IMG/VR virus record: IMGVR_UViG_3300009285_001317
Span: 1-56,740 of that record
DNA: 56,740 nucleotides
From: a virus
Direction: 5' to 3' (one strand)
A program made the translations under genes and the position numbers. Below, one piece after another: positions 5,390 to 26,708 of this stretch. A model generated the notes under the pieces. That model was not told where the DNA came from and made no database searches. It was given only the letters and a program-made list of their open reading frames with translations. Positions within the stretch are counted from its first letter, which is position 1. Every line of letters starts with the position of its first letter.

Positions 5390-5390
5390 C

Positions 5391-6064: not shown

Positions 6065-6247
6065 ATGAAAAATGCGTTAAAGGAAGAATTCGAGCGAGCG
6101 TCGTCAACGAGGGACGATAGACAGTTTTGCCGGAACTTATCCGAGATCATTACTCGGACGCTGGGGGCCACGGTTGCGGCTGACAGGCTGCTGGTGGTCG
6201 CGAACCGGATAAACCCAATCACATTGGGTGACAATGGCGAAGCGTAA
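6065..6247 (+). CDS. unknown 60-residue protein
   Basis: A small protein (MKNALKEEFERASSTRDDRQ and on) with a charged N-terminal helix and a more hydrophobic middle (TRTLGATVAADRLLVVANRI). AAAGGA precedes ATG 6065. It overlaps the next gene by about 20 bases. No family recognised. Confidence 0.6.
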   Translation: MKNALKEEFERASSTRDDRQFCRNLSEIITRTLGATVAADRLLVVANRINPITLGDNGEA

Positions 6248-6519: not shown

Positions 6520-6843
6520 ATGCACATAATCATGGGTCTATTTACAAAAGGGGTTGTGTTGCCGCAGAAGAAGAGAAGTTTCTTTGATCGTTTTCTTGAT
6601 TTGTTTGCTCCAGAGGACATTCAGGAGCCTCTACATTTGCGGACGGCGATGGTATGTGTAAACTGTGAGCGCATATTTAAAGTCAACGGGCATCAGTGCC
6701 CATCATGTACCGATACATCAATTGTTCCGCTGTCGATATGGCTTCCAACGATGAACAGTAAAACTGGAGCCTTATCGTTTGGGACAAAAAAAGAAAGACG
6801 TTTAACCCTTAAAGAAAAACAATTATTACGGGGAGGAGACTAA
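6520..6843 (+). CDS. zinc-binding small protein
   Basis: About 107 residues. The frame is open from 6337, but before 6515 it lies over the preceding zinc-ribbon gene, so ATG 6520 (or 6490/6532) is more likely. CVNCER and CPSC form a second zinc ribbon, as in the neighbour, and the C-terminus is basic (KKERRLTLKEKQLLRGGD). No clear ribosome site; start uncertain. Confidence 0.55.
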   Translation: MHIIMGLFTKGVVLPQKKRSFFDRFLDLFAPEDIQEPLHLRTAMVCVNCERIFKVNGHQCPSCTDTSIVPLSIWLPTMNSKTGALSFGTKKERRLTLKEKQLLRGGD

Positions 6844-7313
6844 TGGGAACATTGGATCACACAACAATAACCGAGAAACTTGAGAAGAAGTTCACTCGCG
6901 AAGAGAAGGAAGAACTGACGCAGGAGCTTGTCCAGAAGATGACCGAACTCGGGGATAAAAGGGATGAGCAGAAGGAGAAAGTGGCACATCTGAACGGGCA
7001 GATTAAGACGCTCGAAAAAGACATCAAGAGGCTGGCCCGTTGCGTAAAAACTGGCTCCGAAATCCAGTCAGTCGAAGTGGAGATCACGAAGGATTACGAG
7101 AAAGGTGAGAAGCGGTTCATGAGGCTCGATACCAACGAGGTATACAAGACCGTCCCCATGGACTACTCGGAACTCACAGCCGGCAGACAGAAGCCGCTAC
7201 CTCTGGACGAACCCAATGGGCAGGAACCCGAGGTAGATGCGGGAGAGGACAGTGGCGAGAGTGAAGAGGAGACGGAAGGGACAGACGAAACAACAGAAGA
7301 AGGGGGAGAATAA
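6843..7313 (+). CDS. coiled-coil protein with acidic tail
   Basis: A 156-residue protein: residues about 8-70 are a heptad-like charged coiled coil, followed by a small central segment and a very acidic C-terminus (the last 35 residues are mainly Glu/Asp/Gly/Thr). GGGGAGG ribosome site. It directly precedes the SMC-like ATPase and may be its partner, by position only. The end overlaps an alternative upstream extension of that ATPase. Confidence 0.65.
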   Translation: MGTLDHTTITEKLEKKFTREEKEELTQELVQKMTELGDKRDEQKEKVAHLNGQIKTLEKDIKRLARCVKTGSEIQSVEVEITKDYEKGEKRFMRLDTNEVYKTVPMDYSELTAGRQKPLPLDEPNGQEPEVDAGEDSGESEEETEGTDETTEEGGE

Positions 7314-7314
7314 A

Positions 7315-8868: not shown

Positions 8869-9050
8869 GGAAGATGTCGATTCAAGACAGGGAGTGGTAT
8901 GTAAAACGATGCCACTCCCTGCAAAAAGAATTACCCAACCTCACCAAGAAGCAAATCAGTGAACGGTTAGGGGTCAACTATGCGACATTACTCACATACT
9001 TGAAACAATTTAAAGAGAAATACGGAGAGGAAGAGTGTATACAGAGATAG
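8865..9050 (+). CDS. small HTH protein
   Basis: A 61-residue protein, coupled by ATGA to the ATPase. LTKKQISERLGVNYATLLTY (about residues 26-45) is a convincing helix-turn-helix, of the sort seen in small phage DNA-binding proteins. It overlaps the start of the next gene by 16 bases. Confidence 0.65.
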   Translation: MRKMSIQDREWYVKRCHSLQKELPNLTKKQISERLGVNYATLLTYLKQFKEKYGEEECIQR

Positions 9051-10525
9051 AGGATTTCATACCAGGGCTTGCGATCTTATACCACGTTAAGATCGGAAGA
9101 AAAGGAGAGAAACGTGAGAAGAAGGGAGGGGGTGGAACATACTCCTTACCCGAGAAGGTTGATCACTTCCTGATCACCGGCAGAGAGCGTGACAAGAAGG
9201 ATGACAACTTCATAGTTGATCAGGCGATGATGAGTAAGATAGGCGAGAATGCGCGGGAAATAGACATCAGGTTCCTATACGACGATATCGCCTTGAATTT
9301 CCCGCACCGGCTTGGCTGCTATGTAACCACCACAGACCTCAAGAGACACTTCAAAATTGAAAGCCGGACGAAACGGTGTTACTGCACAGGGAATGGGAGA
9401 GAAGCCACCAGGCTTACAGCTAAAGGAAAGGACGTTATTGAATGTGCCCCATTGACGTGCAACATTTACAATGAAGCATTCGAGAATGTGAGATGTAAGC
9501 CACTTGCCAGGTTAATATTCACTTTACCCCAGATGGGGATGTTATGCGCGGCGGCAGACTTCGTAACCACGTCAACTGAGACAATCAGGAACATAAAAGG
9601 GTCACTCACGATGATTCAACAAATGACGCAGGGCATAATAGCAGGCATTCCGTTGAAGCTAAAAATGTATTCGACCACAGATGAGACAGGCACAGGGGAG
9701 GTGCGTAACTGGAAAGTTATGGTGGCATTCCCCGGAACAGAGGAGGATCTTTTCGCGATTACAAAACAAATCGCAATGACGAGATCAGCGTCAGCCGTTG
9801 ACATCCGGCGAATTCAACACATGGCGCAGAAGACTATCGAGCACATGGTCACGGAAGTTGAAACTGCCGAGGAAGAGGATTTGAAGGATGAGTTTTGGCC
9901 GGACAAAATTACTGCCGAGCCCCCGACATTTGGACTGTCCGATGAAATCCTTACTGAATTAAACACTCTCTACGACGCCCTCGGTATCAATCAGGCAGGC
10001 CGGTACATGGAGATAGCGCAGTGCAAGTCCGACGAGGACGCCGAGAAGCTGAAGAAAGAGTTAACCGCGAAGGTAGCGCAGAAGAAACCTGAGACGACCG
10101 AAACGAAAGAGATGAAACCTGAGACGAAGACGGCAAATGTTGAAACGAAAGCCTCAACTGTTTCAACCAATGGACCGGAGATCTCAGAGGCAACGATTGA
10201 GTCCGACCCTGAAGCCTCTGCAACGGAAACAGGGGCAACCCAAGTGGATATGCTGGAAGAAGAACTCAAAGAGAACGTCCGTCAGATATTCGAGATATTA
10301 AAGGCGTCTCTCCTCGATAAGCCGGGCTGCGTGGCGTATATCCAAAGGGTGACGAAGAGCGAGATACAGTCATTAGAACAACTCAACCTCGATCAGGCGG
10401 TCATGATCCTGGAGAGGATGAGAAAGAGAACCCCGAAATGCTTGCGGTGTCCGAAGGACGAGGGTTGTATGATGACGCAGGGGCAGTCGGTGATGTGCAA
10501 GGAAGTTGAAACGAAGAAAACGTAA
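9035..10525 (+). CDS. Gp3-like / recombination-directionality-factor-like protein
   Basis: A 496-residue protein with GTG start. The first 300 residues match the pattern of the phage Gp3-like family, often called recombination directionality factor-like or metal-binding: IPGLAILYHVKIGRKG, DHFLITGRERDKKDDN, LYDDIAL, a Cys-rich RCYCTGNGREATRL, then GIIAGIPLKLKM. The C-terminal half is a disordered Glu/Thr/Lys linker followed by a Cys cluster (CLRCPKDEGC). No integrase is in the window, so an excision role is not shown. A replication-associated DNA-binding role is equally possible. Confidence 0.65.
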   Translation: MYTEIEDFIPGLAILYHVKIGRKGEKREKKGGGGTYSLPEKVDHFLITGRERDKKDDNFIVDQAMMSKIGENAREIDIRFLYDDIALNFPHRLGCYVTTTDLKRHFKIESRTKRCYCTGNGREATRLTAKGKDVIECAPLTCNIYNEAFENVRCKPLARLIFTLPQMGMLCAAADFVTTSTETIRNIKGSLTMIQQMTQGIIAGIPLKLKMYSTTDETGTGEVRNWKVMVAFPGTEEDLFAITKQIAMTRSASAVDIRRIQHMAQKTIEHMVTEVETAEEEDLKDEFWPDKITAEPPTFGLSDEILTELNTLYDALGINQAGRYMEIAQCKSDEDAEKLKKELTAKVAQKKPETTETKEMKPETKTANVETKASTVSTNGPEISEATIESDPEASATETGATQVDMLEEELKENVRQIFEILKASLLDKPGCVAYIQRVTKSEIQSLEQLNLDQAVMILERMRKRTPKCLRCPKDEGCMMTQGQSVMCKEVETKKT

Positions 10526-11641: not shown

Positions 11642-11668
11642 TTGAACTTATTAATAAATAAGGATAAT

Positions 11669-12163
11669 ATGGCCACTATTAAACTCACTCAAGGCGAAGA
11701 AGCGTTAGTTGATGATGAGGATTTTGAAAAGTTAAACCAATATTCATGGCATCTCCATAGATTCAAAAAGAAAGGATATAAATGGATGGCGTCACGTATA
11801 GGGGTAAACGATGAAGAGATTTTGATGCATAGGGAAATTATGCAATGCCCTTCCACGCATGTAGTTGATCATATTAACGGGGATAACCTTGATAATAGGA
11901 AAGCAAATCTTAGAGTATGCACAAATGCTGAAAACTGTCGAAATCGTCGCGGCCCTCGCAAAGGAAATCTCTCTGGTTACAAGGGTGTTTCTTGGTCGCA
12001 TGGAAAATGGCACGCAGTTGTCATGAAGAATGGTAAACAATATAGTTTTGGTTATTTTAACGATCCAAAAGAAGCTGCAATAGCGCGGGACCAAGCGGCA
12101 GTGAGACTCCATGGAGAATTCGCATCATTAAATTTCCCGGAAGAAATATTGCAAACAAAATAA
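11669..12163 (+). CDS. HNH homing endonuclease with AP2 domain
   Basis: A 164-residue protein. An HNH nuclease core is visible in LMHREIMQC...VVDHINGDNLDNRKANL with downstream Asn-rich CTNAENCRNRR. It is followed by an AP2-type DNA-binding domain (SGYKGVSWSHGKWHAVVMKN...FGYFNDPKEAAIARDQAAVR). The combination is typical of phage free-standing homing endonucleases. An in-frame TTG lies at 11642; ATG 11669 is preferred after AAGGA. It sits between SSB and the next replication gene as a selfish insertion. Confidence 0.9.
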   Translation: MATIKLTQGEEALVDDEDFEKLNQYSWHLHRFKKKGYKWMASRIGVNDEEILMHREIMQCPSTHVVDHINGDNLDNRKANLRVCTNAENCRNRRGPRKGNLSGYKGVSWSHGKWHAVVMKNGKQYSFGYFNDPKEAAIARDQAAVRLHGEFASLNFPEEILQTK

Positions 12164-13690: not shown

Positions 13691-13891
13691 ATGGACCCGA
13701 TCAAAGTCAACGAGGTCGTCTACAGCCTTCTAAGTTCCATGAACACAGACGAATACGAGCACGTGACCATAGACGAGAAGATCGCGGCTCTCCGAAGCGC
13801 AGCGAGCATGTTGGAGAACATTGTTCAAGTGGAGAGTCAGAAGGAAATGTATAAAGGGATGATGAGGGTGTTTCATCAGGAGCCATCATGA
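13691..13891 (+). CDS. unknown 66-residue protein
   Basis: Starts at the base after the nuclease stop. A charged helical protein (VNEVVYSLLSSMNTDEYEHV and on) without a recognised motif. It overlaps the Toprim gene by ATGA. Translation is probably coupled to both neighbours. Confidence 0.6.
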   Translation: MDPIKVNEVVYSLLSSMNTDEYEHVTIDEKIAALRSAASMLENIVQVESQKEMYKGMMRVFHQEPS

Positions 13892-14781
13892 GAGACAGAT
13901 TTATAGACTATAAATTCAGCAAGGATAGCCTTACGATTATCACGACGGCGAACAATATTCTCACAGAGTATGAAGCGATGGGATACGACCTATCTTTGAG
14001 GCAAATCTACTATCAGTTCGTTGCTCGAGCGATCATAGAGAACTCGGAGAGGTCCTACAAACGCCTTGGGGATATTGTCAGTAATGCCAGGCTTGCTGGC
14101 TTACTGGACTGGGATATGATCAGGGACAGAGGACGTGTAACACGAAGGAACACGCACTGGAACAACCCAGCCGAAATCATTGAATCGGCAGCGCGACAGT
14201 TTGCGATCAACAAATGGGAGAATCAGCCGGTGCATGTTGAGGTAATGGTCGAAAAACAAGCGCTCGAAGGAGTCCTTATTCCAGAGTGCATTGATTTAGA
14301 CATCTCTTTTACTGCCAATAAAGGGTATTCATCTTCGTCCGCGCTCTACGAAGCTGGACAGAGATTGAGCTACCATATTGCAGAAGGCAAGCACTGTATC
14401 GTAATTTATCTCGGAGATCACGACCCTTCAGGGATTGATATGAGTAGGGATGTTGAGTGCCGGCTTAGGCAGTTTGCGAGATCAAATGCGAGTGTCGAGG
14501 TACAGAGAGTGGCGTTAAATATGGACCAGATAAGGAAATTGAAACCCCCGCCAAACCCTACGAAGATCACGGACTCACGGGCAAACGGGTATATAAGAGA
14601 ATTCGGATACGAGTCATGGGAACTCGATGCCTTAGATCCGAAGTTCTTAGCCAGCCTCGTGAGGGACGCCGTTTATGAAGTACGAGACATAGACCTATGG
14701 GAAGAGGCAATCCAAAAAGAAGAGAAGATGAAAAACGATCTCAAGAGAGTAGTAACCCAGCTAAAGAAGAGAGGAGAGTAA
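13888..14781 (+). CDS. Toprim-domain protein, Spo11/TopoVI-A-like
   Basis: A 297-residue protein. LSLRQIYYQFVARAIIENSE (about residues 36-55) resembles the winged-helix domain of topoisomerase VI subunit A. VMVEKQALEGVLIPE supplies the conserved Glu, and IVIYLGDHDPSGIDMSRDV the DxD of a Toprim fold. The YYQF tyrosines are where the catalytic Tyr sits in Spo11/TopoVI-A. No B (GHKL) subunit is seen. It may be a Toprim nuclease rather than a topoisomerase. Confidence 0.7.
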   Translation: MRDRFIDYKFSKDSLTIITTANNILTEYEAMGYDLSLRQIYYQFVARAIIENSERSYKRLGDIVSNARLAGLLDWDMIRDRGRVTRRNTHWNNPAEIIESAARQFAINKWENQPVHVEVMVEKQALEGVLIPECIDLDISFTANKGYSSSSALYEAGQRLSYHIAEGKHCIVIYLGDHDPSGIDMSRDVECRLRQFARSNASVEVQRVALNMDQIRKLKPPPNPTKITDSRANGYIREFGYESWELDALDPKFLASLVRDAVYEVRDIDLWEEAIQKEEKMKNDLKRVVTQLKKRGE

Positions 14782-16308: not shown

Positions 16309-16967
16309 TGGCAGAGAAATCATTTAAGGTCTGGGCAAGCAATATTCAAAATGAGCAGACGTTTCAACCCTTAACAGATGTTCAGATAGGGCAGATGGTC
16401 CGGCTCGGGATACACACTGCAAACAAGGGAAAGCAGGGCGCTGTGAAGTTCAAGTCATTGGACCGGATGGCAAAGTTTTTCAACGTCATGACAATCCTGG
16501 AGGCCGCAGATATCATCAATAAATTACCCGTGACGATGGTTGTCGCAGATACAGGGGATGTGACAGTCACGTTCAAGAATTGGGAGAAGGACCAGGGCGA
16601 CCCTGCCAAGAAACCGAGGAAGGCCAAGACCGAAGTGTCTCCAGAGGAGAAGGCGCTGAAAGCCAAGGCGCGGGACATTATCGGTCGGTACTGTGAGCTC
16701 TTCGAGAAGGAGTACAACGAGAGGCCAGTAATCACGGGAGCCAATGCAGGCGCCGCATTAAGGCTGGCAAAACTTATGGAATCAGGCAGAGATATTATAG
16801 GAGCTCTCGACAAATTCTTCACGTCCAACATCGCGTTCATCAAGAGGACGAGACATGCTTTTAATGTGATAGAAAGCCAGTTGAACAGCCTCTTGATTCA
16901 TGTAGATGAGGAAGATGAGGTTACTGTCCCCTACCATACAGACTTTCATCAGGCGGCACACAGATGA
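16308..16967 (+). CDS. putative replication initiator / helicase loader
   Basis: A 219-residue protein. The N-terminal half contains winged-helix-like stretches. The middle is a basic linker (AKKPRKAKTEVSPEEKALKA). The C-terminal helical region (ARDIIGRYCELFEKEYNERP and on to NVIESQLNSLL) resembles lambda O/DnaD-type C-terminal modules. It overlaps the DnaB gene by 4 bases, where loaders normally sit. The assignment rests on position plus architecture. Confidence 0.55.
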   Translation: MAEKSFKVWASNIQNEQTFQPLTDVQIGQMVRLGIHTANKGKQGAVKFKSLDRMAKFFNVMTILEAADIINKLPVTMVVADTGDVTVTFKNWEKDQGDPAKKPRKAKTEVSPEEKALKAKARDIIGRYCELFEKEYNERPVITGANAGAALRLAKLMESGRDIIGALDKFFTSNIAFIKRTRHAFNVIESQLNSLLIHVDEEDEVTVPYHTDFHQAAHR

Positions 16968-18289
16968 CAGTTCCGAGAATAGGGTACGACAACCTCGATA
17001 GATTACCGCCGCAGAACATAGAAGCAGAACAGTCCCTACTCGGGGCGATTATACTGGACCCTTCAATATTAAGAGAAGTAGAGCTCGAACCCGAGGACTT
17101 TTACAAAGGGGGGCACGTTAAGATCTTCAAGGCCATACTTGACATGGCTGCAATTAAAGAGCCTATCGACCTCATAACATTAAGTGAGCATTTAAGGTCC
17201 TGCGGGGCAATCGAAGATATTGGCGGGGCGTCGTACCTTTCGCAATTACTAAACCTTGCCGGCATATCCTCCAACCATAAAGCCTATGCGGGTATAATTA
17301 AAGATAAGGCCACACGACGTAAATACATCCTCTCGGCTTACGACATTATCCGGAAGTCTTACGACGAGGAGGAGTCCGTCGAGGAAATTAAGCAGGTGTA
17401 TAGGGCAGAGTTCAAAGCGAAGAGGTCGAAGATCATGTCAGCAAGGGACGTAGCTGGGATCACCATTGAATATGTGGACAGAGTTCTGACACAGGGGATA
17501 CCAGGCATTCCAAGTGGGTTCATAGATTTAGATGACCTACTGAAAGGTTTTATCCCTGGGAACCTATATACCATCGGGGGAAGACCTGGATCGGGAAAGA
17601 CTGCCCTCGCATTTAACTGTGCTCTCAATATAGCAGTAAATACTGGAGTGCCTCAAGGCGTATTTGAATTAGAGATGTCTGATGAACAGATGGGGGTTCG
17701 TGCCACATCCGACATTGGAGATATTCATCAGGACCATCTGGCATCAAAGGCAAACTATATAAATTTTCTTAATGCTGCTGAAAAATTCGCGACACTCCCG
17801 ATTCATTTTCACTTTCAGTCCAATATGAATCTCAACATGATAGTGAACGGTATTGACGAGATGGTATGTGACAAAGGGGTGAAATTAATATGGATTGATT
17901 ATCTCCAGCTTGTCAAACATATCATAGAGAACCGAAATCGTGAGGCAGAGGTGTCGGCAATCAGTGGCACACTGAAAAGCTGTGCAAAGGAGTATCGAGT
18001 TCCCATTGTTGTACTTGCCCAGTTGAACCGGGATTGTGAGAAGCGGCCCAACAAACGACCTATGCTGTCTGACTTAAGAGAGAGTGGTAGCCTTGAGCAA
18101 GATTCGGACGCCGTAATTTTTATTTACCGAGACGAGATGTATAACGTGAAAACAAAAGACAAAGGCATTGCTGAAATTATTGCTGCGAAGAACAGACATG
18201 GTAGGACTGGCAGAGTAAAACTTACATGGGACCCAACCCGGACGAAGTTTAAAAATTTAGCATATGGAGAGGAGGGGTTATATGGTTAA
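16964..18289 (+). CDS. dnaB: replicative DnaB-type helicase
   Basis: A 441-residue protein. The N-terminal domain (PPQNIEAEQSLLGAIILDP) is DnaB-like. Walker A GRPGSGKTA lies near residues 205-213 and Walker B KLIWIDYLQLV near 309. Motif 3/4 PIVVLAQLNRD and a LSDLRESGSLEQDSD stretch follow. Unwinds the phage fork. The end (AYGEEGLYG) extends past the usual DnaB terminus and overlaps the first base of the cassette region, so it may have been altered by insertion. Confidence 0.92.
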   Translation: MTVPRIGYDNLDRLPPQNIEAEQSLLGAIILDPSILREVELEPEDFYKGGHVKIFKAILDMAAIKEPIDLITLSEHLRSCGAIEDIGGASYLSQLLNLAGISSNHKAYAGIIKDKATRRKYILSAYDIIRKSYDEEESVEEIKQVYRAEFKAKRSKIMSARDVAGITIEYVDRVLTQGIPGIPSGFIDLDDLLKGFIPGNLYTIGGRPGSGKTALAFNCALNIAVNTGVPQGVFELEMSDEQMGVRATSDIGDIHQDHLASKANYINFLNAAEKFATLPIHFHFQSNMNLNMIVNGIDEMVCDKGVKLIWIDYLQLVKHIIENRNREAEVSAISGTLKSCAKEYRVPIVVLAQLNRDCEKRPNKRPMLSDLRESGSLEQDSDAVIFIYRDEMYNVKTKDKGIAEIIAAKNRHGRTGRVKLTWDPTRTKFKNLAYGEEGLYG

Positions 18290-18497
18290 GTCCATCGTGT
18301 GCAGGGCATTCATCTGCATGATTTTGATAGTCTCCTGTAATAATGTGCCACCATGCCGTGAAGGTTTCAGTGGTTTATCAGGAGAAAGCAAAGAGGAAGC
18401 GATGAACCGATACGAGGATGTATGTATAAGAGAAGGGCATGAAAATACTTTAGAGGAATGCATTAACCGTAAAATCAACACATGTGAAAGAGACTAA
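18282..18497 (+). CDS. small predicted lipoprotein
   Basis: A 71-residue protein with a signal peptide (MVKSIVCRAFICMILIVSC): Lys-charged start, hydrophobic core and an ILIVSC lipobox, so the cysteine near residue 19 would be lipidated and placed in the membrane. The mature part has four further cysteines. ATG 18282 lies within the end of dnaB, after GAGGAGGGG. Its TAA is part of the first attC, so it may be the first cassette. Function unknown. Confidence 0.65.
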   Translation: MVKSIVCRAFICMILIVSCNNVPPCREGFSGLSGESKEEAMNRYEDVCIREGHENTLEECINRKINTCERD

Positions 18498-18625
18498 CTG
18501 AAAGGTGAGTGAGTAGGAGCATGGAAAATAGCAACAAGCAAGAGAGCAGTAACCGAGAAGAAATACAGACGACAGAAAAAGCGTCCTGTGTTCCTCCTTC
18601 GGTGCATAAAGATGATTTGTTATGT
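18494..18625 (+). other. attC-like site 1
   Basis: Starts with the inverse core CTAAC (18494-18498) and ends with GTTATGT (18619-18625), 132 bp. Inner arms GTAGGAG (18513-18519) and CTCCTTC (18594-18600) pair less regularly than at the other sites. The TAA of the lipoprotein gene is in the inverse core. The least canonical member of the array, but of the same length and orientation. Confidence 0.6.
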
Positions 18626-18790
18626 TGTCCTTTTTGCGGGGGTGATGCCATCATCGAGCAGACCAGAAGCAACGAACTACAAGTAAAATGCGGTCATTGT
18701 TTAATAGGATTAAAACAAAAAGTGAAACATAACTCATTGAAATGGCTAAGAGGAGTTTTGATAAAAGCATGGAACCAGCGAGCAAGATAA
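18521..18790 (+). CDS. Lar-like restriction alleviation protein
   Basis: Up to 89 residues. CCPFCGGDAIIEQ, a CGHC pair 20 residues on, and a final IKAWNQRAR are the hallmarks of Lar-like small phage proteins, which moderate type I restriction in the E. coli Rac prophage case. Residues 1-33 are read from attC site 1 and look like low-complexity junk. TTG 18617 would give a 57-residue product beginning just at the Cys motif. The start is therefore uncertain. Cassette gene; its TAA is in the next attC. Confidence 0.7.
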   Translation: MENSNKQESSNREEIQTTEKASCVPPSVHKDDLLCCPFCGGDAIIEQTRSNELQVKCGHCLIGLKQKVKHNSLKWLRGVLIKAWNQRAR

Positions 18791-18917
18791 CAACATGATC
18801 ACTGACGAGGGCCTGTAAAAACATGAAAGAGCAAGATAAACAGTTGATAACCAATGACCAGTCACAGTCAGAAACGAGTCCTGAGGCACTCGTTCACCGT
18901 GCATCTATTGGTTATCC
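18786..18917 (+). other. attC-like site 2
   Basis: Inverse core GATAAC (18786-18791) and core GTTATCC (18911-18917), 132 bp. Inner arms TGACGAG (18803-18809) and CTCGTTCA (18889-18896) pair except for one extra base in the 3' arm, as expected for the extrahelical base of attC. The stop of the Lar-like gene is in the inverse core. Confidence 0.8.
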
Positions 18918-19557
18918 TCGTCCCTGTCTGCTCGATCTCTTTTGTTGTGGAGGCGGCGCCGGGATGGGATACAATCGTGCAGGGTTCAATGTAACAGGTG
19001 TGGATATAAACCCGCAACCAAAATATCCCTTCCGATTTGTCCAGGGGGATGCGCTTGATTACGTCAAGTCTCATGGTCATGAATATGACGCTATCCATGC
19101 CTCCCCTCCTTGTCAGGCATACAGCCATCTGACACCAGAACAAAGCAGAGAAAACCATGAACGGATGATCCCCGCTGTTCGGGATCTTCTTAAAGCCACT
19201 GGCAAGCCCTATGTGATTGAGAATGTAGCCGGTGCACGAAAAGAACTTGAAAGCCCGGTGATGCTCTGCGGAAGCATGTTCGGACTGAGGACACAGAGGC
19301 ACAGGTTTTTTGAAACATCTTTCTCGGTAACGCCTGCTGGACAATGTGATCACAGCGTCCTGCCGCTGTTGGTGACGACGGCAAGTAAGGCAAGTAGACA
19401 AAGACGCTTTGCGCTGGGAATGCAGCCAAAATCAGTGAAGAACGCGCCGGAAGCATACGGCATTGACTGGATGGGTTTTTCGGAACTGAAAGAGGCAATA
19501 CCGCCCGCTTACACCGAATATATAGGCAAACAACTATTGATGAGCATAAGAGGATAA
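18823..19557 (+). CDS. cytosine-C5 DNA methyltransferase
   Basis: Up to 244 residues. LLDLFCCGGGAGMGYNRAGF is motif I (SAM binding). ASPPCQAYS near residue 97 holds the catalytic Cys (motif IV), and ENVAGAR near 133 is motif VI. The short region before MGFSELKEAIPPAYTEYIGK (motifs IX-X) leaves a small target-recognition part. It transfers methyl to cytosine C5; in a phage this usually protects DNA from restriction. The first 26 residues lie in attC site 2, so the true start may be later. Cassette gene. Confidence 0.88.
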   Translation: MKEQDKQLITNDQSQSETSPEALVHRASIGYPRPCLLDLFCCGGGAGMGYNRAGFNVTGVDINPQPKYPFRFVQGDALDYVKSHGHEYDAIHASPPCQAYSHLTPEQSRENHERMIPAVRDLLKATGKPYVIENVAGARKELESPVMLCGSMFGLRTQRHRFFETSFSVTPAGQCDHSVLPLLVTTASKASRQRRFALGMQPKSVKNAPEAYGIDWMGFSELKEAIPPAYTEYIGKQLLMSIRG

Positions 19558-19679
19558 CTATAAAGTCAGTGACCACGACAAGAGCAAAATGATAATTAAT
19601 AATCTTAAAACTAACAGCAGTCAGAACCACTCTCAAAAAGTGACCTGTGCAAGTGGTTCACTGCACTGCTTTGTTAGAG
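19553..19679 (+). other. attC-like site 3
   Basis: Inverse core GATAAC (19553-19558) and core GTTAGAG (19673-19679), 127 bp. Inner arms TGACCAC (19570-19576) and GTGGTTCA (19653-19660) pair with one unpaired extra base in the 3' arm. The methyltransferase stop TAA is inside the inverse core. Confidence 0.8.
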
Positions 19680-19703
19680 TGCCTGTATTTGAAGGGAGGT
19701 ATT

Positions 19704-20636
19704 TTGAATATCGTTAAAATGATCTTTGGCAGTCAACTATATGGCACTGCCAATGAAAAGTCAGACAAAGATTTTAAGGGCGTATTTATGCCCTTAAGAG
19801 AGCAAATATTCCTCGGTAAAATACCGAAGAGCTTATCCGAGAACACAAAAAAGGATAGCAACTCCAAGAATACCGCTGAAGACATTGACACAGAAATGTA
19901 CTCCCTCCACTACTTCATCCATTTGGCTTGTGAAGGAGAAACGGCAGCTCTTGATATGCTTCATGCCCCGGACAATATGCTGGTTGAAACCTCTGAGATA
20001 TGGAAGAGCATAGTTGCCGAACGGCAACGCTTCTACACGAAGAATCTAAAAGCATTTGTCGGCTATGCAAGGCGGCAGGCTTCCAAGTATGGAATCAAGG
20101 GATCACGGCTGAATGACGCAAAACGTGTTCTTGATTTTTGCGGAAGCACTGCCATGTCTCAAAGAGTAAAGCAGGTATGGAATCAGCTACCCGAAGGGGA
20201 GCATATCTTTAAACTGCCTGAAGATGATAACGGCGTAAGAATGTATGAAGTCTGCGGACGGAAGACTTGTGAAACTGCGAGCATTGAATATCTCTTCCAG
20301 ACTGTCAAAAAGTTTCATGATAATTATGGTGAACGGGCGAGGCAAGCTGCCAACAATGAGAATATCGACTGGAAGGCTGTTAGTCATGCGCTCCGGGCAG
20401 CATATCAAGTGAAGCAGATATTGACTCAAAAAACTATTGTCTTTCCGCTTGCGGAAGCTGATTATCTCCGGCAAGTCAAGGAAGGACGCTTGCCTTATCA
20501 AAGTGAAGTCGCGCCGAGACTGGACGGCCTCATGGATGAAATAGAGTCCTTAAGTGCAACCAGTGACTTGCCCATGAATGTGAATCGTAAATATTGGGAT
20601 AACTGGCTCATCTCAGTCATTGAGGGGCAACTATGA
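19704..20636 (+). CDS. RlaP-like nucleotidyltransferase
   Basis: A 310-residue protein, TTG 19704 behind GGGAGG. MIFGSQLYGTANEKSDKDFK with GS...D-x-D is the polymerase-beta-like nucleotidyltransferase motif of the predicted RlaP/COG3541 family. The helical C-terminal part (YARRQASKYG, AYQVKQILTQ) follows the family layout. First gene of a two-gene cassette with the HD protein, coupled by ATGA. Biological role is not established. RNA repair is the guess from the family name. Confidence 0.75.
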   Translation: MNIVKMIFGSQLYGTANEKSDKDFKGVFMPLREQIFLGKIPKSLSENTKKDSNSKNTAEDIDTEMYSLHYFIHLACEGETAALDMLHAPDNMLVETSEIWKSIVAERQRFYTKNLKAFVGYARRQASKYGIKGSRLNDAKRVLDFCGSTAMSQRVKQVWNQLPEGEHIFKLPEDDNGVRMYEVCGRKTCETASIEYLFQTVKKFHDNYGERARQAANNENIDWKAVSHALRAAYQVKQILTQKTIVFPLAEADYLRQVKEGRLPYQSEVAPRLDGLMDEIESLSATSDLPMNVNRKYWDNWLISVIEGQL

Positions 20637-21145
20637 TATACGACACAGAAAACATGAAGCCTCTTTTTGAGTTTGTGGACAGATTGCACGGCATAGAACA
20701 ATCGCCATTACACCACCCTGAAGGATGCGTCTTAACGCATACGCTCCAAGTCGTTACACTTGCCTTCCGGGAAACCATAGACACTGATTTGATTCTTGCA
20801 GCCTTGCTTCATGACATCGGCAAATTTGAGAACTCAAAGGGGCATGAACAACTTGCCGTTGAATGGCTTGACCCTTATTGCAGCGCAAAAACGCTTTGGC
20901 TTATAGATAACCATATGCGAGTATGGTATTACCTCTACGGCCAAATGAAGAAGCTCGGTAAATGCGTTGAACTGGCTGGACATCCTTATCTGCCCGAGTT
21001 AATACAGTTGGCAAGATGGGATCATACGGGCCGTCAGCCGAATCGCAAAATACGATATGACAAGATTGTAATTGTTGACCGTCTCAATCGGGCAGCAATG
21101 GAATATTTTAAACCGGCTCCGCTACCAGAAAGCGGGGCACTCTAA
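20633..21145 (+). CDS. HD-domain phosphohydrolase
   Basis: A 170-residue protein, ATGA-coupled to the nucleotidyltransferase. H near residue 31 (LTHTLQVV), AALLHDIGKFEN (about 57-68, the HD pair) and a later D (RYDKIVIVDRL) give the H...HD...D metal site of HD hydrolases, which cut phosphoester bonds in nucleotides or RNA. The second gene of a two-gene cassette, so it may act on the product of its neighbour. Confidence 0.85.
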   Translation: MIYDTENMKPLFEFVDRLHGIEQSPLHHPEGCVLTHTLQVVTLAFRETIDTDLILAALLHDIGKFENSKGHEQLAVEWLDPYCSAKTLWLIDNHMRVWYYLYGQMKKLGKCVELAGHPYLPELIQLARWDHTGRQPNRKIRYDKIVIVDRLNRAAMEYFKPAPLPESGAL

Positions 21146-21271
21146 CGTATGAGTGAGCGAATCAGACCATGTAGGACGCAAGGTAGCGTAAAGACTGTTC
21201 ATAAGAGAACGAACAGACAGAAGCTCAAAAAGCGTTCTGTGGTCTGATTTCGCTCCAATCAATTGTTATAT
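21142..21271 (+). other. attC-like site 4
   Basis: Inverse core CTAAC (21142-21146) and core GTTATAT (21265-21271), 130 bp. A long inner pairing GAGCGAATCAGACCA (21155-21169) against 21240-21255 has one extra base in the 3' arm. This is one of the clearest members of the array. The HD gene stop is in the inverse core. Confidence 0.85.
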
Positions 21272-21294
21272 TTGGACATTGAAAGGAGAATGAT

Positions 21295-21426
21295 ATGAAA
21301 ACAATTTATATTGAAATCGCACTGGATGAAGAAGAGGGGGAAGATGAGGCTGGAATAAAAAGAGATATTGAAAGGGCTTTGAACCAAATAGGGCACTTCC
21401 CGGAATCTATTGAGATCGGGGAGTAA
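21295..21426 (+). CDS. 43-residue acidic cassette protein
   Basis: A short cassette gene (MKTIYIEIALDEEEGEDEAG and on to ESIEIGE), very acidic. ATG 21295 follows AAAGGAGAA, and the stop lies three bases before the next inverse core. Single gene between two attC sites, which argues it is a real unit. Acidic small proteins can mimic DNA, for example to block restriction enzymes, but that is speculation. Confidence 0.65.
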   Translation: MKTIYIEIALDEEEGEDEAGIKRDIERALNQIGHFPESIEIGE

Positions 21427-21558
21427 ATATAACGACAAGTTGAGTCACGAGTGACACTGTAAGATATAAAATGCAAAGAAACCAATTGATAACTTTAAAC
21501 CATAACCAAGCCGGAAAGTGTTGTGTGGCACTCGTTGATCTCGAACGCTTGGTTATCT
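21427..21558 (+). other. attC-like site 5
   Basis: Inverse core ATAAC (to 21433) and core GTTATCT (21552-21558), about 130 bp. Inner arms TCACGAG (21445-21451) and CTCGTTGA (21531-21538) pair with one extra base in the 3' arm. The spacer next to the core is longer on the 3' side (TCTCGAACG versus TTGAG), also typical of attC. Confidence 0.85.
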
Positions 21559-21568
21559 GAGGCAGCCT

Positions 21569-21889
21569 ATGTATTTAATAACTCGGAAACAGCTCATAAA
21601 AAATGTCCCGAAGCGATGGGACGAACAATATCCACCTAACACAGCAGGCACCGATAAAGTCGTAATCGGCAAACAGCTCAAAAAACTTAATCTGGAAACG
21701 GCGACTATTCACGACATTAAGAATGTCATTGGTAATTATTCATGGACAAGCATGAAATGTGATGAATGCGGAAGGGACGATGATGATCTTGATGCAGTCA
21801 TTCAGGTTAGTGAAGAGCCAGACTATGAAAGTAATACAGCCTCACTCTGCAAGAAGTGTGTAAAAAAGGCAAAGGACTTATTCAGATAA
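21569..21889 (+). CDS. cassette protein with zinc-binding cysteines
   Basis: A 106-residue protein, ATG 21569 ten bases after the attC core. The cysteines CDEC (about residues 64-67) and CKKC (about 93-96) suggest a zinc ribbon. The rest is helical and basic at the ends. The TAA is part of the next attC. Unrecognised family. Confidence 0.65.
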   Translation: MYLITRKQLIKNVPKRWDEQYPPNTAGTDKVVIGKQLKKLNLETATIHDIKNVIGNYSWTSMKCDECGRDDDDLDAVIQVSEEPDYESNTASLCKKCVKKAKDLFR

Positions 21890-22012
21890 CGGCATGATCA
21901 GTGACGGCTGGAATAGCCGTAGAAAGGATTGAAAAGTGAAAGACAATAAGAAGCCAAACAAGGTTAAAAAAGGGAAGTGTGCAAGCCGTTCAGCTGCATC
22001 TACGGGTTATGT
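21885..22012 (+). other. attC-like site 6
   Basis: Inverse core GATAAC (21885-21890) and core GTTATGT (22006-22012), 128 bp. Inner arms TGACGGCT (21902-21909) and AGCCGTTCA (21984-21992) pair with one extra base in the 3' arm. The next gene starts with the GTG that overlaps the core. Confidence 0.8.
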
Positions 22013-22166
22013 GGCTTTTCCTGATAGAATTGTAAAATCTCATCCCGGCAAGACGCGGTTAAACAAAAAACTGATTAAGAAGGCAGTGAAAGAATCCCCC
22101 GTTGATTATGAAAAAGCATTGACTGAATTGAAGCAGATGAAAGATGCTTGCATCCGGAGGAATTAA
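22011..22166 (+). CDS. 51-residue basic cassette protein
   Basis: Starts with GTG 22011, which overlaps the end of the attC core (GTTATGTG). The frame is open upstream through the attC from GTG 21936, but that part reads as site sequence. Lysine-rich (PGKTRLNKKLIKKAVKESPV). It is followed two bases later by another small gene. Function unknown. Confidence 0.55.
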   Translation: MAFPDRIVKSHPGKTRLNKKLIKKAVKESPVDYEKALTELKQMKDACIRRN

Positions 22167-22167
22167 T

Positions 22168-22323
22168 ATGGACAACGAAATTATTGACGGATGGGACGGA
22201 ATCAATGAATGGCAACCAAGGGCATTAACAACCGTGGAGCGCCATCAAATCCAACAAGCGGAACTGGAAGAGTACATGTCAAACCGAACTCCTTTTAAAT
22301 TAGGAGAACCGATTTACACATAA
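22168..22323 (+). CDS. 51-residue cassette protein
   Basis: ATG 22168 with CCGGAGGAATTAAT upstream. The frame reads MDNEIIDGWDGINEWQPRAL and on to GEPIYT. The TAA at 22321 is the first part of the next attC. Second gene of a small two-gene cassette. Not recognised. Confidence 0.6.
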   Translation: MDNEIIDGWDGINEWQPRALTTVERHQIQQAELEEYMSNRTPFKLGEPIYT

Positions 22324-22447
22324 CGATAAAGTTGAGTGACGAGGACTGAAGGACATGAAACGGCAGCATAAACAATCAACCGAGCAAAGTGTTGAACAAG
22401 GAAACAGGACGTGTGGTCCTCGTTCATCCTCCAACGCTTTGTTATCT
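22318..22447 (+). other. attC-like site 7
   Basis: Inverse core ATAAC (to 22324) and core GTTATCT (22441-22447), 130 bp. Inner arms TGACGAGGAC (22337-22346) and GTCCTCGTTCA (22416-22426) pair with one extra base in the 3' arm. It is very close in arm sequence to sites 2 and 5, which suggests a common lineage. Confidence 0.85.
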
Positions 22448-22458
22448 GTGGGGAGCCA

Positions 22459-22725
22459 ATGGCTTTTTTAAGACAGGCATTCGGTAGGCGGAGCTATAAG
22501 TGTGATGGCTGTGGCAGGGAAGGTCTGTGGGATGATAACTGGAGTTTTTACGGCTCTATTGGTCATCAAGAAACATGTCCTGCTGATCTACCAACCGCTT
22601 GCTCAGATCAATGTATGGATATGGTAGAACGTAAGATAAAAAAGGGGGAATATAAACTGCCCTCAGTCAGAATGGATCGAAACGGATACCATAGCAGTAA
22701 AGTGACTGAACGACAAGGATACTGA
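22459..22725 (+). CDS. zinc-binding cassette protein
   Basis: An 88-residue protein, ATG 22459 twelve bases after the attC core behind GGGGAG. CDGCGREGLW, a following HQETCP and CSDQC give a Cys/His-rich zinc site. The C-terminal part is basic. The stop lies just before site 8. Not recognised. Confidence 0.6.
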   Translation: MAFLRQAFGRRSYKCDGCGREGLWDDNWSFYGSIGHQETCPADLPTACSDQCMDMVERKIKKGEYKLPSVRMDRNGYHSSKVTERQGY

Positions 22726-22727
22726 CA

Positions 22728-22834
22728 GATAACACTAACATCAGTGATGCGAGGGAGGGAGTAAAGACATATGCCGAATATTAAAGACAAAATCAAGCCG
22801 TGTGGTGAGCATTCACTGCATGATATGGTTAGTA
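22728..22834 (+). other. attC-like site 8
   Basis: Inverse core GATAAC (22728-22733) and core GTTAGTA (22828-22834), 107 bp, shorter than the others. Inner arms TGATGC (22745-22750) and GCATTCA (22809-22815) pair with one extra base in the 3' arm. Confidence 0.75.
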
Positions 22835-23250
22835 CTGCTTACGTCCATTTTTCTTCTGCTTCTAATGAATGGATGACCCCACAAGACTTCTTTGATCTGC
22901 TCAATGATGAGTTTCAGTTTACGCTTGATCCATGCTCTACCCATGAAAACGCTAAATGTAAAAAACACTACACGCTGGCGGAGGATGGTCTTTCAAAGTC
23001 ATGGGCTGGTGAGACTGTCTTTATGAATCCGCCCTATGGTCGTGAGATCGGCAAATGGATGAAAAAGGCATATCTTGAATCACTGAAAGGTGCAACGGTA
23101 GTCTGCTTAGTTCCGGCCCGGACTGATACGCAGTGGTTCCACGAATATGCCATGAAAGGGGGAATAAGATTTATCAAGGGACGGCTTAAATTTGGAGGAC
23201 ATAAAAACTCTGCACCCTTTCCGAGTATGGTAGTGGTGCTTGAGTACTAA
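22825..23250 (+). CDS. phage DNA N6-adenine methyltransferase (Dam-like)
   Basis: A 141-residue protein. SNEWMTPQDFFDLLNDEFQF followed by LDPCS, and MNPPYG near residue 68 (catalytic NPPY), match the phage N6-adenine methyltransferase family. VCLVPARTDTQWFHEYA and the terminal FGGHKNSAPFPSMVVVLEY are typical of it too. ATG 22825 is three bases upstream of the attC core; ATG 22771 would add 18 residues read from attC. Methylation likely masks restriction sites or marks phage DNA. Last cassette. Confidence 0.85.
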   Translation: MVSTAYVHFSSASNEWMTPQDFFDLLNDEFQFTLDPCSTHENAKCKKHYTLAEDGLSKSWAGETVFMNPPYGREIGKWMKKAYLESLKGATVVCLVPARTDTQWFHEYAMKGGIRFIKGRLKFGGHKNSAPFPSMVVVLEY

Positions 23251-23275
23251 CATCTATTAGGCGAACCGTGCAAGG
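23247..23275 (+). other. half attC remnant at the right end of the array
   Basis: After the adenine methyltransferase stop, CTAAC and ATCTATTAGGCGAACC (23252-23267), then GTGCAAGG, resemble the 5' arm plus a start of the loop of attC, and no core GTTA follows before the next phage gene. Read in reverse it also looks like a 3' arm. It may be a truncated site left by the event that closed the array. Confidence 0.4.
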
Positions 23276-24140: not shown

Positions 24141-26708
24141 ATGTCATCTGAATCGGAACGAGTAGCAGAAGAGAACGCCAATGGAAAGAACAATCACTTA
24201 CCTGTAGGCCAACCCGAAGGGCATATCATCCTGGCAGACTTTCTTGAGAAGTATGGGGCAGAGGATGTCAGGTTGTCGTTAAGCACCCTGCAACACGCCT
24301 GCCGTAAACAATTCCTCCTTGCTAAGAAACAGCGACTCCCGATGCAGATAGGGAACCGTAAAACGAAGACCTTGGTGACTCGCTGGTTCATACTCGACTT
24401 ACCTCCGCAGGAACATCCCGGATGGGAGAAGTTCAATAAGTTCTCCCAGAACCGGCTGTTGAAAAAGTCTACGAAAGCAGTCCTTAAGAACTTCGATAAG
24501 ATGGCGCCAATCCTGTTAGACAACTATGACAACCGGGAGAACCAGGACCAGACGCTATTTAAACTGTCTGAACTGTCAAAGATACTCACCATCTCTCAAG
24601 AGACTATTATGTATTTGGCGATGGTCGGTATTAAGGGATACGGGCAAATTCCCATAACGAAGATTAACCCGAAGCAGGTGCAACTGAGAGCAGAGGGTGG
24701 AGACTATACCTGCCGGGACCCAAAATGGGACCAGCGCTCAACCGTGTTCTTCGAGCACAAAGATATCCGGAGGTTCCTCAGAAAGGAACTACTCACCAAG
24801 AAGTTCAACCTGGCAGAGGATAAACTGAAGCAGAACAACCTGCCTGAGATAATCGCGTCACAGGGGTATTATGTCTACGACCCCGACAAGGTACACCCGT
24901 TTACATATGAGGGCTTCTTGGCATGGGCCAAGGAGAACATAGTCTTCTACGATAAGGTGTCGCGGAAGATCATGCCCTTCAAGCCGAGTGCGAAACAGTT
25001 GGAGTTCTACCAGAAGGTGTTCCTCCAGAAGTCCCCAGGTCTATTGAAATACAAGATCCTCGGTATCTGCCGGCCCCGAGGCGATTACAAAACATTTGAT
25101 GCCGCGCTACTGGTTCTCTTCAGGTTCTTCAACCTTGAGAAAGAACTTATCTACCTTGTCACGAACTCGGTTCAGCAGACGACTCACCTGATATTTAAGG
25201 AGATAATCACCGCGATGAAATACTCGCCAACCCTATCAAAGATGTTGGATACGCCAGGACTGGATATCCAGAAGGACGGTATCTATCTTCGGTCAGGTAG
25301 AGGCGACGAGAACGTGATTAACTCTATCCAGATCATCTCAGCAGAGGGTGGCGCCAGATCGAACGCAACGTGCTTTGCATGGTCAGAGGCGTGGAAGTAC
25401 AAGGGGAACGAGGTGAACGTAGCGGAACTCGAGCAGTCTATCCGAGGCGTGGACAATGCGTGGTTCGTAGTTGAATCTACGGTTGCACCAAAGGGGCACT
25501 TCTTTCAACGGTATTACAAAATATCGCTCGACGGGGGAGACAAGGTTTTGTATTTCCAGTATTACGACGGCTCGCAGAGATGCAACCTTAAAATTAAGAA
25601 CGATCCGGACTATCTTGATTTCCTCCGGAAGCAGTGGGGGACATTATATTTCAATATGTTCTTCGGGAACCGATGGGAAGATGCAGCCATCAGTGTTTTC
25701 TCGAAGGACAGCATAATTGAGATAGGGTATCTGGGAGTACATGGAAGAGTATCGAGAGACAGGGAATTAATCGAGACCGTCTCTCAGATTGTGGACATAG
25801 GTGGCAGAGTCAATAAACTCGAAGCTGGGTACGATGTCAGGGTCCTACAGTTTGAGCAACAGCAATTAATAAAGCGGCTCAACCCTATAGAGCAATACTA
25901 CAAAGATCAGTTCCCTGCACCGAACGACATACTGATAGAACTTGGACAGATATTCAACTGTGAGTTCATCGTAGGGATAGGGCTCGACAGAGCGAAACAT
26001 TCAGAGTCGCGGTCTATGAAACAGACCCCAGACAGAACCGTACAGGCGACAGTGGCTCGTGGCATCCTGGACCCTGCGATATGGGGAACCGACAGGATCT
26101 TCTTTCTGCTAAACCTGATCATCAATACAGAACTTTCGTTTCAGACAATACTGAAGCAGCTTGAGCACGACTGCAATATGTACGCAGGAGGGTTTGCGTA
26201 TATCGACCTTGAGGACTATAACGCCATCGACTTAAACAACGAACTGAGAATTCTATTTGGGGAGGAGTCATCATGGATAGCTCCCATCTCATTCAAACAT
26301 CAGGAGACGATATTCACTGAGCTCGATCTGGCATTACAGAATGGCTATTTCAAAGCGCCCCACTTGAACATCTGGACAGATAAAGAGGATGGGGTAATCT
26401 ACAGCCCCCCTGAAAAGGGGTTCGAGGATATACTCAGGTCGGAACTCAGCGCGTTCGAGGCACATGCTGGGACCAACAAGGAAGGTAAGGGCCGGCAAGG
26501 ATACTACGGGTCCTGCTACAAGAAACAGACTGGGAGAACAGCGCTTGGGGAGGCCAAGGATGATACGGTGTACGCCATTGCCCATGCGATACATGCCTCA
26601 ATCCGGGGGGACATTCCTGCAGTATTGATGCACACGAAGTTTCCAGAGACAATGATCAATAAGGACGTGATTGCCGATTACGGGAGTTACGGATTGAAAA
26701 CATTTTAA
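24141..26708 (+). CDS. terL: terminase large subunit, extended N-terminus
   Basis: An 855-residue protein, much longer than the usual 450-600. Residues about 1-290 are an added domain with an HTH-like LFKLSELSKILTISQETIMY (about 140-160). Then comes the ATPase, with a degenerate P-loop RPRGDYKT near 311-318. The RNase H-like nuclease has GIGLDRA near 612-618 and a late acidic AKDDTVYAIAHA near 805. It packages DNA into the procapsid. The N-terminal domain may do the work of a small terminase, for which no separate gene is obvious. Confidence 0.85.
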   Translation: MSSESERVAEENANGKNNHLPVGQPEGHIILADFLEKYGAEDVRLSLSTLQHACRKQFLLAKKQRLPMQIGNRKTKTLVTRWFILDLPPQEHPGWEKFNKFSQNRLLKKSTKAVLKNFDKMAPILLDNYDNRENQDQTLFKLSELSKILTISQETIMYLAMVGIKGYGQIPITKINPKQVQLRAEGGDYTCRDPKWDQRSTVFFEHKDIRRFLRKELLTKKFNLAEDKLKQNNLPEIIASQGYYVYDPDKVHPFTYEGFLAWAKENIVFYDKVSRKIMPFKPSAKQLEFYQKVFLQKSPGLLKYKILGICRPRGDYKTFDAALLVLFRFFNLEKELIYLVTNSVQQTTHLIFKEIITAMKYSPTLSKMLDTPGLDIQKDGIYLRSGRGDENVINSIQIISAEGGARSNATCFAWSEAWKYKGNEVNVAELEQSIRGVDNAWFVVESTVAPKGHFFQRYYKISLDGGDKVLYFQYYDGSQRCNLKIKNDPDYLDFLRKQWGTLYFNMFFGNRWEDAAISVFSKDSIIEIGYLGVHGRVSRDRELIETVSQIVDIGGRVNKLEAGYDVRVLQFEQQQLIKRLNPIEQYYKDQFPAPNDILIELGQIFNCEFIVGIGLDRAKHSESRSMKQTPDRTVQATVARGILDPAIWGTDRIFFLLNLIINTELSFQTILKQLEHDCNMYAGGFAYIDLEDYNAIDLNNELRILFGEESSWIAPISFKHQETIFTELDLALQNGYFKAPHLNIWTDKEDGVIYSPPEKGFEDILRSELSAFEAHAGTNKEGKGRQGYYGSCYKKQTGRTALGEAKDDTVYAIAHAIHASIRGDIPAVLMHTKFPETMINKDVIADYGSYGLKTF

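What the first reader, a model, noticed from the sequence alone, without database searches (positions are those of the whole stretch)
18277..23275. Integron-type gene-cassette array inside a phage replication region
Seen: eight sites of about 107-132 bp, each opening with an inverse core ending in TAAC and closing with a GTTA core, all in one orientation, each with pairing inner arms in which the 3' arm has one extra base. Between them are one or two short genes each, whose stops are part of the site and whose starts follow it. Known: this is attC architecture from integrons (Y-R inverse core, core GTT, extrahelical base). Inference: the phage carries a cassette array, without an integrase in view, right after dnaB. 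To my knowledge such arrays in phage genomes are rare.
Basis: partly seen in the sequence, partly recalled or inferred. Interest (0 to 1): 0.93.

Follow-up and report, generated by a model that had tools for sequence, protein, structure and literature searches.

The report
Phage integron array, attC sites inverted
This bacterial virus carries a row of swappable genes, several of them likely anti-defence genes, bounded by integron recombination sites that face the opposite way from the usual bacterial arrangement, and many uncultured phages with their own integron integrase are built the same way, pointing to a phage-adapted form of the gene-shuffling system best known for spreading antibiotic resistance.

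Summary
The eight sites are attC-type integron sites, but they read on the minus strand, so the cassette genes (plus strand) are antisense to their attC. Evidence: 7 of 8 sites have 2-5 extra bases on one arm only, in the layout of bacterial attC read on the minus strand. Boxes flanking each gene are mutually complementary (23 of 24 variable bases). Covariance models trained without the window put their top 4 (R1, bacterial) and top 6 (R2, viral) hits exactly on predicted sites, all minus, with modest E-values (best 0.07 and 0.002). Four ORFs can start inside the preceding attC and run through its right box. The right edge resembles phage attI (rank 14 of 1813). No integrase is in the contig. 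The same inversion dominates integrase-bearing IMG/VR contigs: 60 antisense, 17 sense, against 3 and 44 in bacteria; Pfam homology agrees. Their IntIs form viral-only clades. Window cargo includes Lar, two DNA methyltransferases and RlaP+HD. Phage attC clusters are known (Qi 2023); a systematically inverted phage form was not found in ten literature searches.

The parts
18489..18625 (-). attC-like site A (decayed arms; distal end of the array if read from the right-hand attI-like site)
   Evidence: TAAC/GTTA boxes, own-arm score 5.0, no hit with either model
18785..18917 (-). attC site B
   Evidence: arms pair, score 10.5, with 5 gaps all on one side; no hit with either model
19552..19679 (-). 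attC site C
   Evidence: R1 14.8 bits (E 0.34), R2 19.8 bits (E 0.012), minus
21140..21271 (-). attC site D (best-paired arms)
   Evidence: arm score 15; R2 9.8 bits (E 2.9), minus
21427..21558 (-). attC site E
   Evidence: R1 18.0 bits (E 0.069), R2 23.0 bits (E 0.0021), minus
21884..22012 (-). attC site F
   Evidence: R2 14.8 bits (E 0.18), minus
22318..22447 (-). attC site G
   Evidence: R1 14.2 bits (E 0.44), R2 23.0 bits (E 0.0022), minus
22727..22834 (-). attC site H
   Evidence: R1 11.8 bits (E 1.5), R2 12.6 bits (E 0.61), minus
23245..23275 (-). attI-like site (minus: GCCTAATAGATG|TTAGTAC); box complementary to H's right box
   Evidence: box match 7 of 7; rank 14 of 1813 GTTs with a PWM of 27 phage attI candidates, left edge ranks 723 and 1444
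18509..18790 (+). cassette gene: Lar-like restriction alleviation protein (unit 18498-18790); ORF starts inside site A
   Evidence: PF14354 7e-8, phrog_599 1.3e-7
18823..19557 (+). cassette gene: DNA methyltransferase (C-5 cytosine type; unit 18791-19557); ORF starts inside site B
   Evidence: phrog_363 1.1e-41, PF00145 1.3e-5
19647..20636 (+). cassette gene: RlaP-like nucleotidyltransferase (two-gene unit 19558-21145)
   Evidence: PF10127 1.4e-13, phrog_388 6.7e-90
20633..21145 (+). cassette gene: HD-domain protein, same unit
   Evidence: PF01966 5.6e-10
21295..21426 (+). cassette gene, 43 aa, unknown (unit 21146-21432)
   Evidence: no family
21569..21889 (+). cassette gene, 106 aa, unknown (unit 21433-21889)
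   Evidence: only weak family matches, E 0.017 or worse
21936..22323 (+). two small cassette ORFs (21936-22166, 22144-22323; unit 21890-22323); the first can start inside site F
   Evidence: the first has no family, the second was not searched
22459..22725 (+). cassette gene, 88 aa, Cys-rich, unknown (unit 22324-22732)
   Evidence: no family
22771..23250 (+). cassette gene: Dam-type N6-adenine methyltransferase (unit 22733-23250); ORF starts inside site H
   Evidence: PF05869 3.2e-25, phrog_111 2e-54; 64% identical over 134 aa to a cassette gene of IMG/VR contig L025
18282..18497 (+). gene 1, between dnaB and site A; possibly an end cassette that lost its attC (inference)
   Evidence: stop is the TAA of site A's left box; left edge does not match
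16964..18289 (+). flanking DnaB-like helicase
   Evidence: phrog_19 2.5e-103
24141..26708 (+). flanking terminase-like protein
   Evidence: phrog_9 E 5.2e-4, weak

Best explanation
The stretch is an integron cassette array in a tailed-phage genome, without its own integrase in the contig, in which the genes are antisense to their attC sites. Each unit is one attC (minus-strand polarity) plus the plus-strand gene or genes that follow it, from C of one xTAA|C box to TAA of the next (8 units, 18498-23250). An attI-like site at about 23245-23275 would be the primary docking point. Proposed working: an integron integrase in the cell (host, prophage or co-infecting phage) folds the attC strand and joins it at G|TTA, so units enter or leave one at a time; the genes are expressed by read-through of the rightward phage transcript, for which they must face plus, as in integrase-bearing phages whose cassettes are inverted the same way. 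The named cargo (Lar, two DNA methyltransferases; RlaP+HD of unclear role) suggests a swappable anti-restriction kit. Shown by computation: sites, polarity, unit boundaries, gene direction, likeness to IntI-bearing viral contigs. Inferred: recombination by IntI, supply in trans, read-through expression, anti-defence role.
For: Extra-base layout equals bacterial attC on the minus strand only (bacterial 87 of 89 sites on the strand opposite intI). CM R1 (34 bacterial attC): top 4 window hits are E, C, G, H, all minus; R1 is strand-true in bacteria (133 of 133 hits opposite intI; 34 of them its training sites, which I had chosen on that strand). CM R2 (150 sites, three from named phages, the rest IMG/VR, none from the window): top 6 hits E, G, C, F, H, D, all minus, best E 0.002. 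Boxes complementary, 23 of 24 variable bases. Four ORFs open from inside an attC across its right box. attI-like right edge. Gene strand: IMG/VR IntI contigs 60 antisense, 17 sense, 56 undecided; bacteria 3, 44, 39. Pfam families on antisense and sense ORFs: 13 and 1 in IMG/VR (two of the 13 are intI itself), 0 and 38 in bacteria. Phage hallmark genes beside such arrays.
Against: No integrase in the 56.7 kb contig, so activity is unproven and the array may be frozen. Single-site E-values are weak with R1 (0.07-1.5) and modest with R2 (0.002-2.9); A and B are hit by neither. The contig is linear, of unknown completeness, and has no near relative to show cassette turnover. The attI match is moderate (13 other GTTs score higher). 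The cruder ORF-length rule called one window unit sense (1 sense, 6 antisense, 1 ambiguous). The first small gene of the site F unit could also start at a GTG just after F's box.
Confidence: 0.82

Rival explanations
1. Ordinary (sense) cassette array: each unit is a gene followed by its own attC, attC polarity plus, captured from a host chromosomal integron.
For: Gene starts follow a GTTA box and stops fall in TAAC, as in ordinary cassettes; in the published phages TJE1 and H101 and in Rctr41k my site polarity and the annotated gene strand agree.
Against: Extra bases lie on the wrong arm for plus polarity in 7 of 8 sites; all model hits on the sites are minus; a crossover at the right box would cut the Lar, cytosine methyltransferase and Dam ORFs.
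Confidence: 0.08
2. A frozen fossil: a real inverted array that can no longer move, its genes kept simply as phage genes.
For: No intI in the contig; site A decayed.
Against: Seven of eight box pairs are perfect 7-mers and seven of eight sites keep paired arms with extra bases, which decay would erode.
Confidence: 0.3
3. Not integron-related: intergenic hairpins serving as terminators or RNA regulators.
For: Sites lie between genes; no Rfam match either way.
Against: Does not explain complementary boxes across each gene, the attC-type extra-base layout, or hits by attC models trained elsewhere.
Confidence: 0.03
4. Assembly chimera of a phage and a bacterial integron.
For: IMG/VR record of unknown completeness.
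Against: Bacterial arrays here have mostly sense genes (44 sense, 3 antisense); the window's cassette genes face as the phage genes do and carry phage-type families; dnaB and gene 1 run continuously over the left edge.
Confidence: 0.03

Closest known systems
Clusters of attC sites lacking an integrase (CALINs) in phages, Qi et al. 2023 (PMC9892861; abstract, sections 2.1 and 3.4 and passages read)
   Same: attC arrays without intI in phage genomes, DNA methyltransferases among the cargo; five of six tested phage attC sites recombined with IntI1
   Different: TJE1 and H101 (PH101 in the paper) are sense by annotation and my site polarity; the window has 8 units read as antisense. The passages read report no systematic inversion (divergent site directions are noted for P12002L)
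Integrase-bearing contigs in IMG/VR (e.g. L025, L026, L055, L060, L080)
   Same: attC opposite to intI, genes mostly antisense to attC, attI candidate at the intI end, methyltransferase/Dam cargo
   Different: they keep intI next to the array; the window does not. Their sites mostly score higher and are shorter and GC-richer
Chromosomal integrons of bacteria (80 loci fetched by intI)
   Same: attC fold, box logic, one-directional site array
   Different: genes mostly sense to attC (44 sense, 3 antisense, 39 undecided)
Treponema-type integrons (PMC3607928, passages read) and virus Rctr41k
   Same: intI and cassette genes face the same way
   Different: there intI is turned and the genes stay sense; Rctr41k's five attC hits at E below 0.02 are all on the strand of intI and of its annotated genes

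Membership tests
attC site | Paired inner arms with unpaired extra bases on one side | tested here: met
   7 of 8 sites; same layout in bacterial sites
attC site | R''/R' boxes: AAC and GTT, with cassette ends complementary | tested here: met
   23 of 24 variable bases over 8 units; the full GTTRRRY consensus is only partly kept (GTTATCT and the like)
attC site | Match to an attC covariance model above background | tested here: inconclusive
   6 of 8 sites with R2, three of them below E 0.02; 4 of 8 with R1, best E 0.07. IntegronFinder's own model was not available
attC site | Recombines with IntI | not testable with these tools
   needs a bench assay
Integron (complete) | intI gene next to attI | tested here: not met
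   no TIGR02249 match at E up to 10, no PF00589 match at E up to 1 in the record
Integron (complete) | attI site | tested here: inconclusive
   right edge ranks 14 of 1813
CALIN | Two or more attC sites without intI | tested here: met
Ordinary cassette | Gene sense to its attC | tested here: not met
   window 0 sense, 6 antisense, 2 unclear by codon scoring; 1, 6, 1 by ORF length

The most novel reading that the evidence does not exclude
Phages have a dedicated branch of the integron system: viral-only lineages of IntI with arrays whose genes are turned antisense to attC, so that cassettes are read by the phage operon rather than from an integron promoter. This makes a cassette pool adapted to phages and largely silent in bacterial integrons (and the reverse), through which phages trade anti-defence genes; the window is a member that relies on an integrase in trans.
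Probability: 0.6. Interest if true: 0.9.

Novelty: new variant of a known kind. Interest (0 to 1): 0.82.

Why it matters
Integrons are known as bacterial gene-capture platforms, famous for drug resistance, with a cassette format tied to one promoter (recalled). A phage format with the genes reversed would mean that the format follows the carrier's transcription, that phage and bacterial cassette pools are partly separated by gene polarity, and that phages own a shuffling device for counter-defence genes.

Tried and rejected
Near relatives of the phage: DnaB and terminase proteins gave none in IMG/VR; the middle of the terminase gave only L168, which shares a short terminase stretch and one other protein; the terminase has no tblastn match in 50,697 phage records and DnaB only distant ones, best 41%. 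So cassette variability at this place is untested. Rfam: no match at gathering scores. A pattern for perfect arms in the window: 0 matches. Minimum-energy folds of whole sites were uninformative on either strand. An ORF-length rule for gene strand was replaced by codon scoring because many intervals were ambiguous; it gave bacteria 48 sense, 7 antisense, 17 ambiguous and IMG/VR 28, 50, 56.

Rows dropped: the first gene-strand counts used 172 sites in 38 IMG/VR loci and 94 in 22 bacterial loci, leaving out 19 of the 189 hits and 39 of the 133, among them eleven bacterial loci with 2-3 hits; one search gave IMG/VR 62 antisense, 17 sense, 55 undecided and bacteria 3, 36, 33, one of the 62 being an L032 interval that holds intI itself. 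One search repeats the count with all these hits (plus two L062 hits), without that interval: IMG/VR 66, 17, 59; without the exact copies L018 and L047, 60, 17, 56; bacteria 3, 44, 39. L017, which overlaps L016, stays in. The Pfam test used the first, smaller site list and skipped L050, L062, L018, L017, L047, L015; two of its 13 antisense families come from intI in the L032 interval. Of 270 IMG/VR IntI relatives only the best 80 were fetched.

Against the reading: L050 (from an isolate) holds 11 of the 17 sense cassettes; L022, L023, L025, L051, L062, L081 hold the others. In L062, L066, L068, L077 attC lies on the strand of intI, so inversion is not universal. In Vibrio phage L005 the annotated array genes are mostly sense, but one methyltransferase (5835-6503) is antisense. 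The attI boxes were found in all 36 loci tried, with no chance control, and 5 of them lie more than 250 bases from intI. The IntI tree was built by the quick method.
Full report
What is there. The window is an IMG/VR virus record of 56,740 bases, linear, with a DnaB-like gene at 16964-18289 and a weakly terminase-like gene at 24141-26708. Between them lie eight sites of 108-137 bases (A-H), each TAAC...GTTA, separated by one or two short plus-strand genes. Arms within each site pair far better than arms of different sites: 0 of 20,000 re-pairings reach the observed sum. The box that opens each gene's interval is the reverse complement of the box that closes it: 23 of 24 variable bases over eight units, 33 of 100,000 permutations as good. 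That is what integron cassettes show, because both boxes were one paired site in the free circle (recalled). The left edge at 18277 fails this test and the box at 23245 passes it, so the matched units run from site A to 23250.

Polarity. In bacterial integrons fetched by their integrase (80 loci), read in cassette direction, the extra bases sit on the left arm, typically 3 pairs, extra base, 3-6 pairs and one or two further extra bases; 87 of 89 sites found by that rule lie on the strand opposite intI. In the window the same layout appears only on the minus strand: four sites by the strict rule, seven with a looser gap cost. A covariance model from 34 bacterial sites (R1) hits the bacterial loci 133 times, all on the expected strand (34 are its training sites, chosen on that strand). 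In the window, both strands, its four best hits are E, C, G and H with exact ends, all minus, E 0.069-1.5. A second model (R2) from 150 sites, one of Shewanella phage L004, two of Vibrio phage L005 and 147 of IMG/VR loci, none from the window, puts its six best window hits on E, G, C, F, H and D, all minus, E 0.0021-2.9. Sites A and B are hit by neither. R1 also misses likely sites elsewhere: in L005, where the arm rule finds ten, it finds two.

Independent support comes from reading frames. The ORFs of Lar (18509/18521-18790), the cytosine methyltransferase (18823-19557), a 76-aa protein (21936-22166) and Dam (22771-23250) open inside the site before them and run through its arm and right box, with purine-rich stretches upstream of the starts. 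By inspection, later in-frame starts exist for Lar (TTG) and Dam (ATG), but still at or before the box; for the methyltransferase every in-frame start before its conserved motif lies inside site B; the 76-aa protein could instead start at a GTG just past the box. A crossover at the right box would cut the first, second and fourth; a crossover at the left box (xTAA|C) moves each gene whole, and the stop codon is the TAA next to the crossover in 6 of 8 units.

The right edge. Between array and intI of 36 IMG/VR loci I looked for a box matching the first attC, which would mark attI; one was found in all 36 (up to one mismatch, no chance control), within 250 bases of intI in 31. Ten end in TGTCGnnGAATTTAA|GTT. 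A PWM from 27 of them ranks the window's right edge 14th of 1813 GTTs and its left edge 723rd and 1444th. The last bases resemble those of L080 and L082. This supports, but does not prove, an attI at 23245-23275. No integrase is present (TIGR02249, PF00589).

Is the inversion general? An IntI alignment found 270 IMG/VR stretches; the best 80 were fetched. R1 finds 189 attC hits there, 186 of them opposite to intI. With codon-usage scoring, attC-bounded intervals give 60 antisense, 17 sense, 56 undecided in IMG/VR (exact copies L018 and L047 removed; antisense in 27 and sense in 7 of 38 loci) and 3 antisense, 44 sense, 39 undecided in bacteria. A stricter margin on a smaller site list gives 55, 14, 65 and 0, 29, 43; the window gives 6, 0, 2. 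By homology, the longest ORFs of 50 aa or more in 104 IMG/VR intervals match 13 Pfam families on the antisense strand (84 ORFs; two of the families are intI itself, caught in one interval of L032) and 1 on the sense strand (73 ORFs); in 72 bacterial intervals 0 (58 ORFs) and 38 (63 ORFs). Genes beside such arrays include large terminase and portal (L025), portal and head protease (L080), tail genes (L055), and 19 of 100 flanking proteins scanned match a phage integrase family. In a quick IntI tree of 139 rows, 60 of 68 IMG/VR rows fall in viral-only groups of 40 (support 95), 8 (82), 10 (99) and 3 rows (98; with Rctr41k); all 23 rows labelled as antisense arrays lie in the first two. The loci with attC on the strand of intI (L062, L066, L077; L068, Rctr41k) lie in the other two. 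So viral integrons show two layouts, genes turned against attC, or intI turned as described for Treponema; both make the genes face with intI.

Cargo. Window: Lar, cytosine methyltransferase, RlaP+HD, Dam, and unknown small proteins. Its Dam is 64% identical over 134 aa to a cassette Dam in L025. Seventy-six plus-strand cassette proteins from IMG/VR (75, and the L060 Dam added by hand) match PAPS reductase (4), N6/N4 methylase (2), Dam (2), DHH (2), Mom (1), Acb2/Tad1 hairpin (1) and others; at least 55 of 76 match no Pfam family at E 0.001. This fits counter-defence in part, which is inference.

What is known. Qi et al. 2023 (PMC9892861; abstract, sections 2.1 and 3.4 and passages read) report 17 attC clusters, 3 complete integrons and one integrase without cassettes from 10,705 phage genomes, methyltransferase cargo, and recombination of five of six tested phage sites with IntI1. 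Passages only were read of PMC9668308, PMC3607928, PMC11014356 and PMC8876359. Ten literature searches, in an open-licence library without preprints, showed no report of a systematic gene inversion in phage integrons in their listings; an editorial that uses the words 'phage integrons' once (PMC10556736) was not opened. This is not proof of absence.

Verdict. The window is an integrase-less phage cassette array of an inverted variety that is common among the integrase-bearing IMG/VR contigs examined.

Noticed in passing
L003 (KX853513, virus Rctr41k), 4680-5678 and 6641-9434: A virus of a DAMO enrichment encodes an IntI (45% to IntI1) annotated as xerD, with five attC hits downstream on the same strand: apparently a complete phage integron of the other layout.
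   Followed up: partly
L008-L012: IMG/VR contigs with 99-100% class 1 IntI1; phage nature not checked, could be prophage, plasmid or contamination.
   Followed up: no
IMG/VR loci L015, L016, L020, L025, L026 and others, next to intI: A conserved attI-candidate motif TGTCGnnGAATTTAA|GTT in 10 of 36 loci.
   Followed up: partly
L226:6940-8287: IMG/VR contig with a Dam gene and three strong attC hits but no IntI in the stretch held: another integrase-less candidate.
   Followed up: partly
L005:5835-6503: In a Vibrio phage array with mostly sense genes, an annotated methyltransferase lies antisense between two attC-like sites.
   Followed up: no
window 11642-12163: ORF with 37% and 30% identity to two annotated HNH endonucleases of Polaribacter phage P12002L (L006).
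   Followed up: no
window 13888-14781: Protein 59% identical to one in L062, an integrase-bearing IMG/VR contig.
   Followed up: no
attC sites A-H, inner loop: A shared CACA-like stretch just inside the arms in most sites suggests that they descend from one site family.
   Followed up: no
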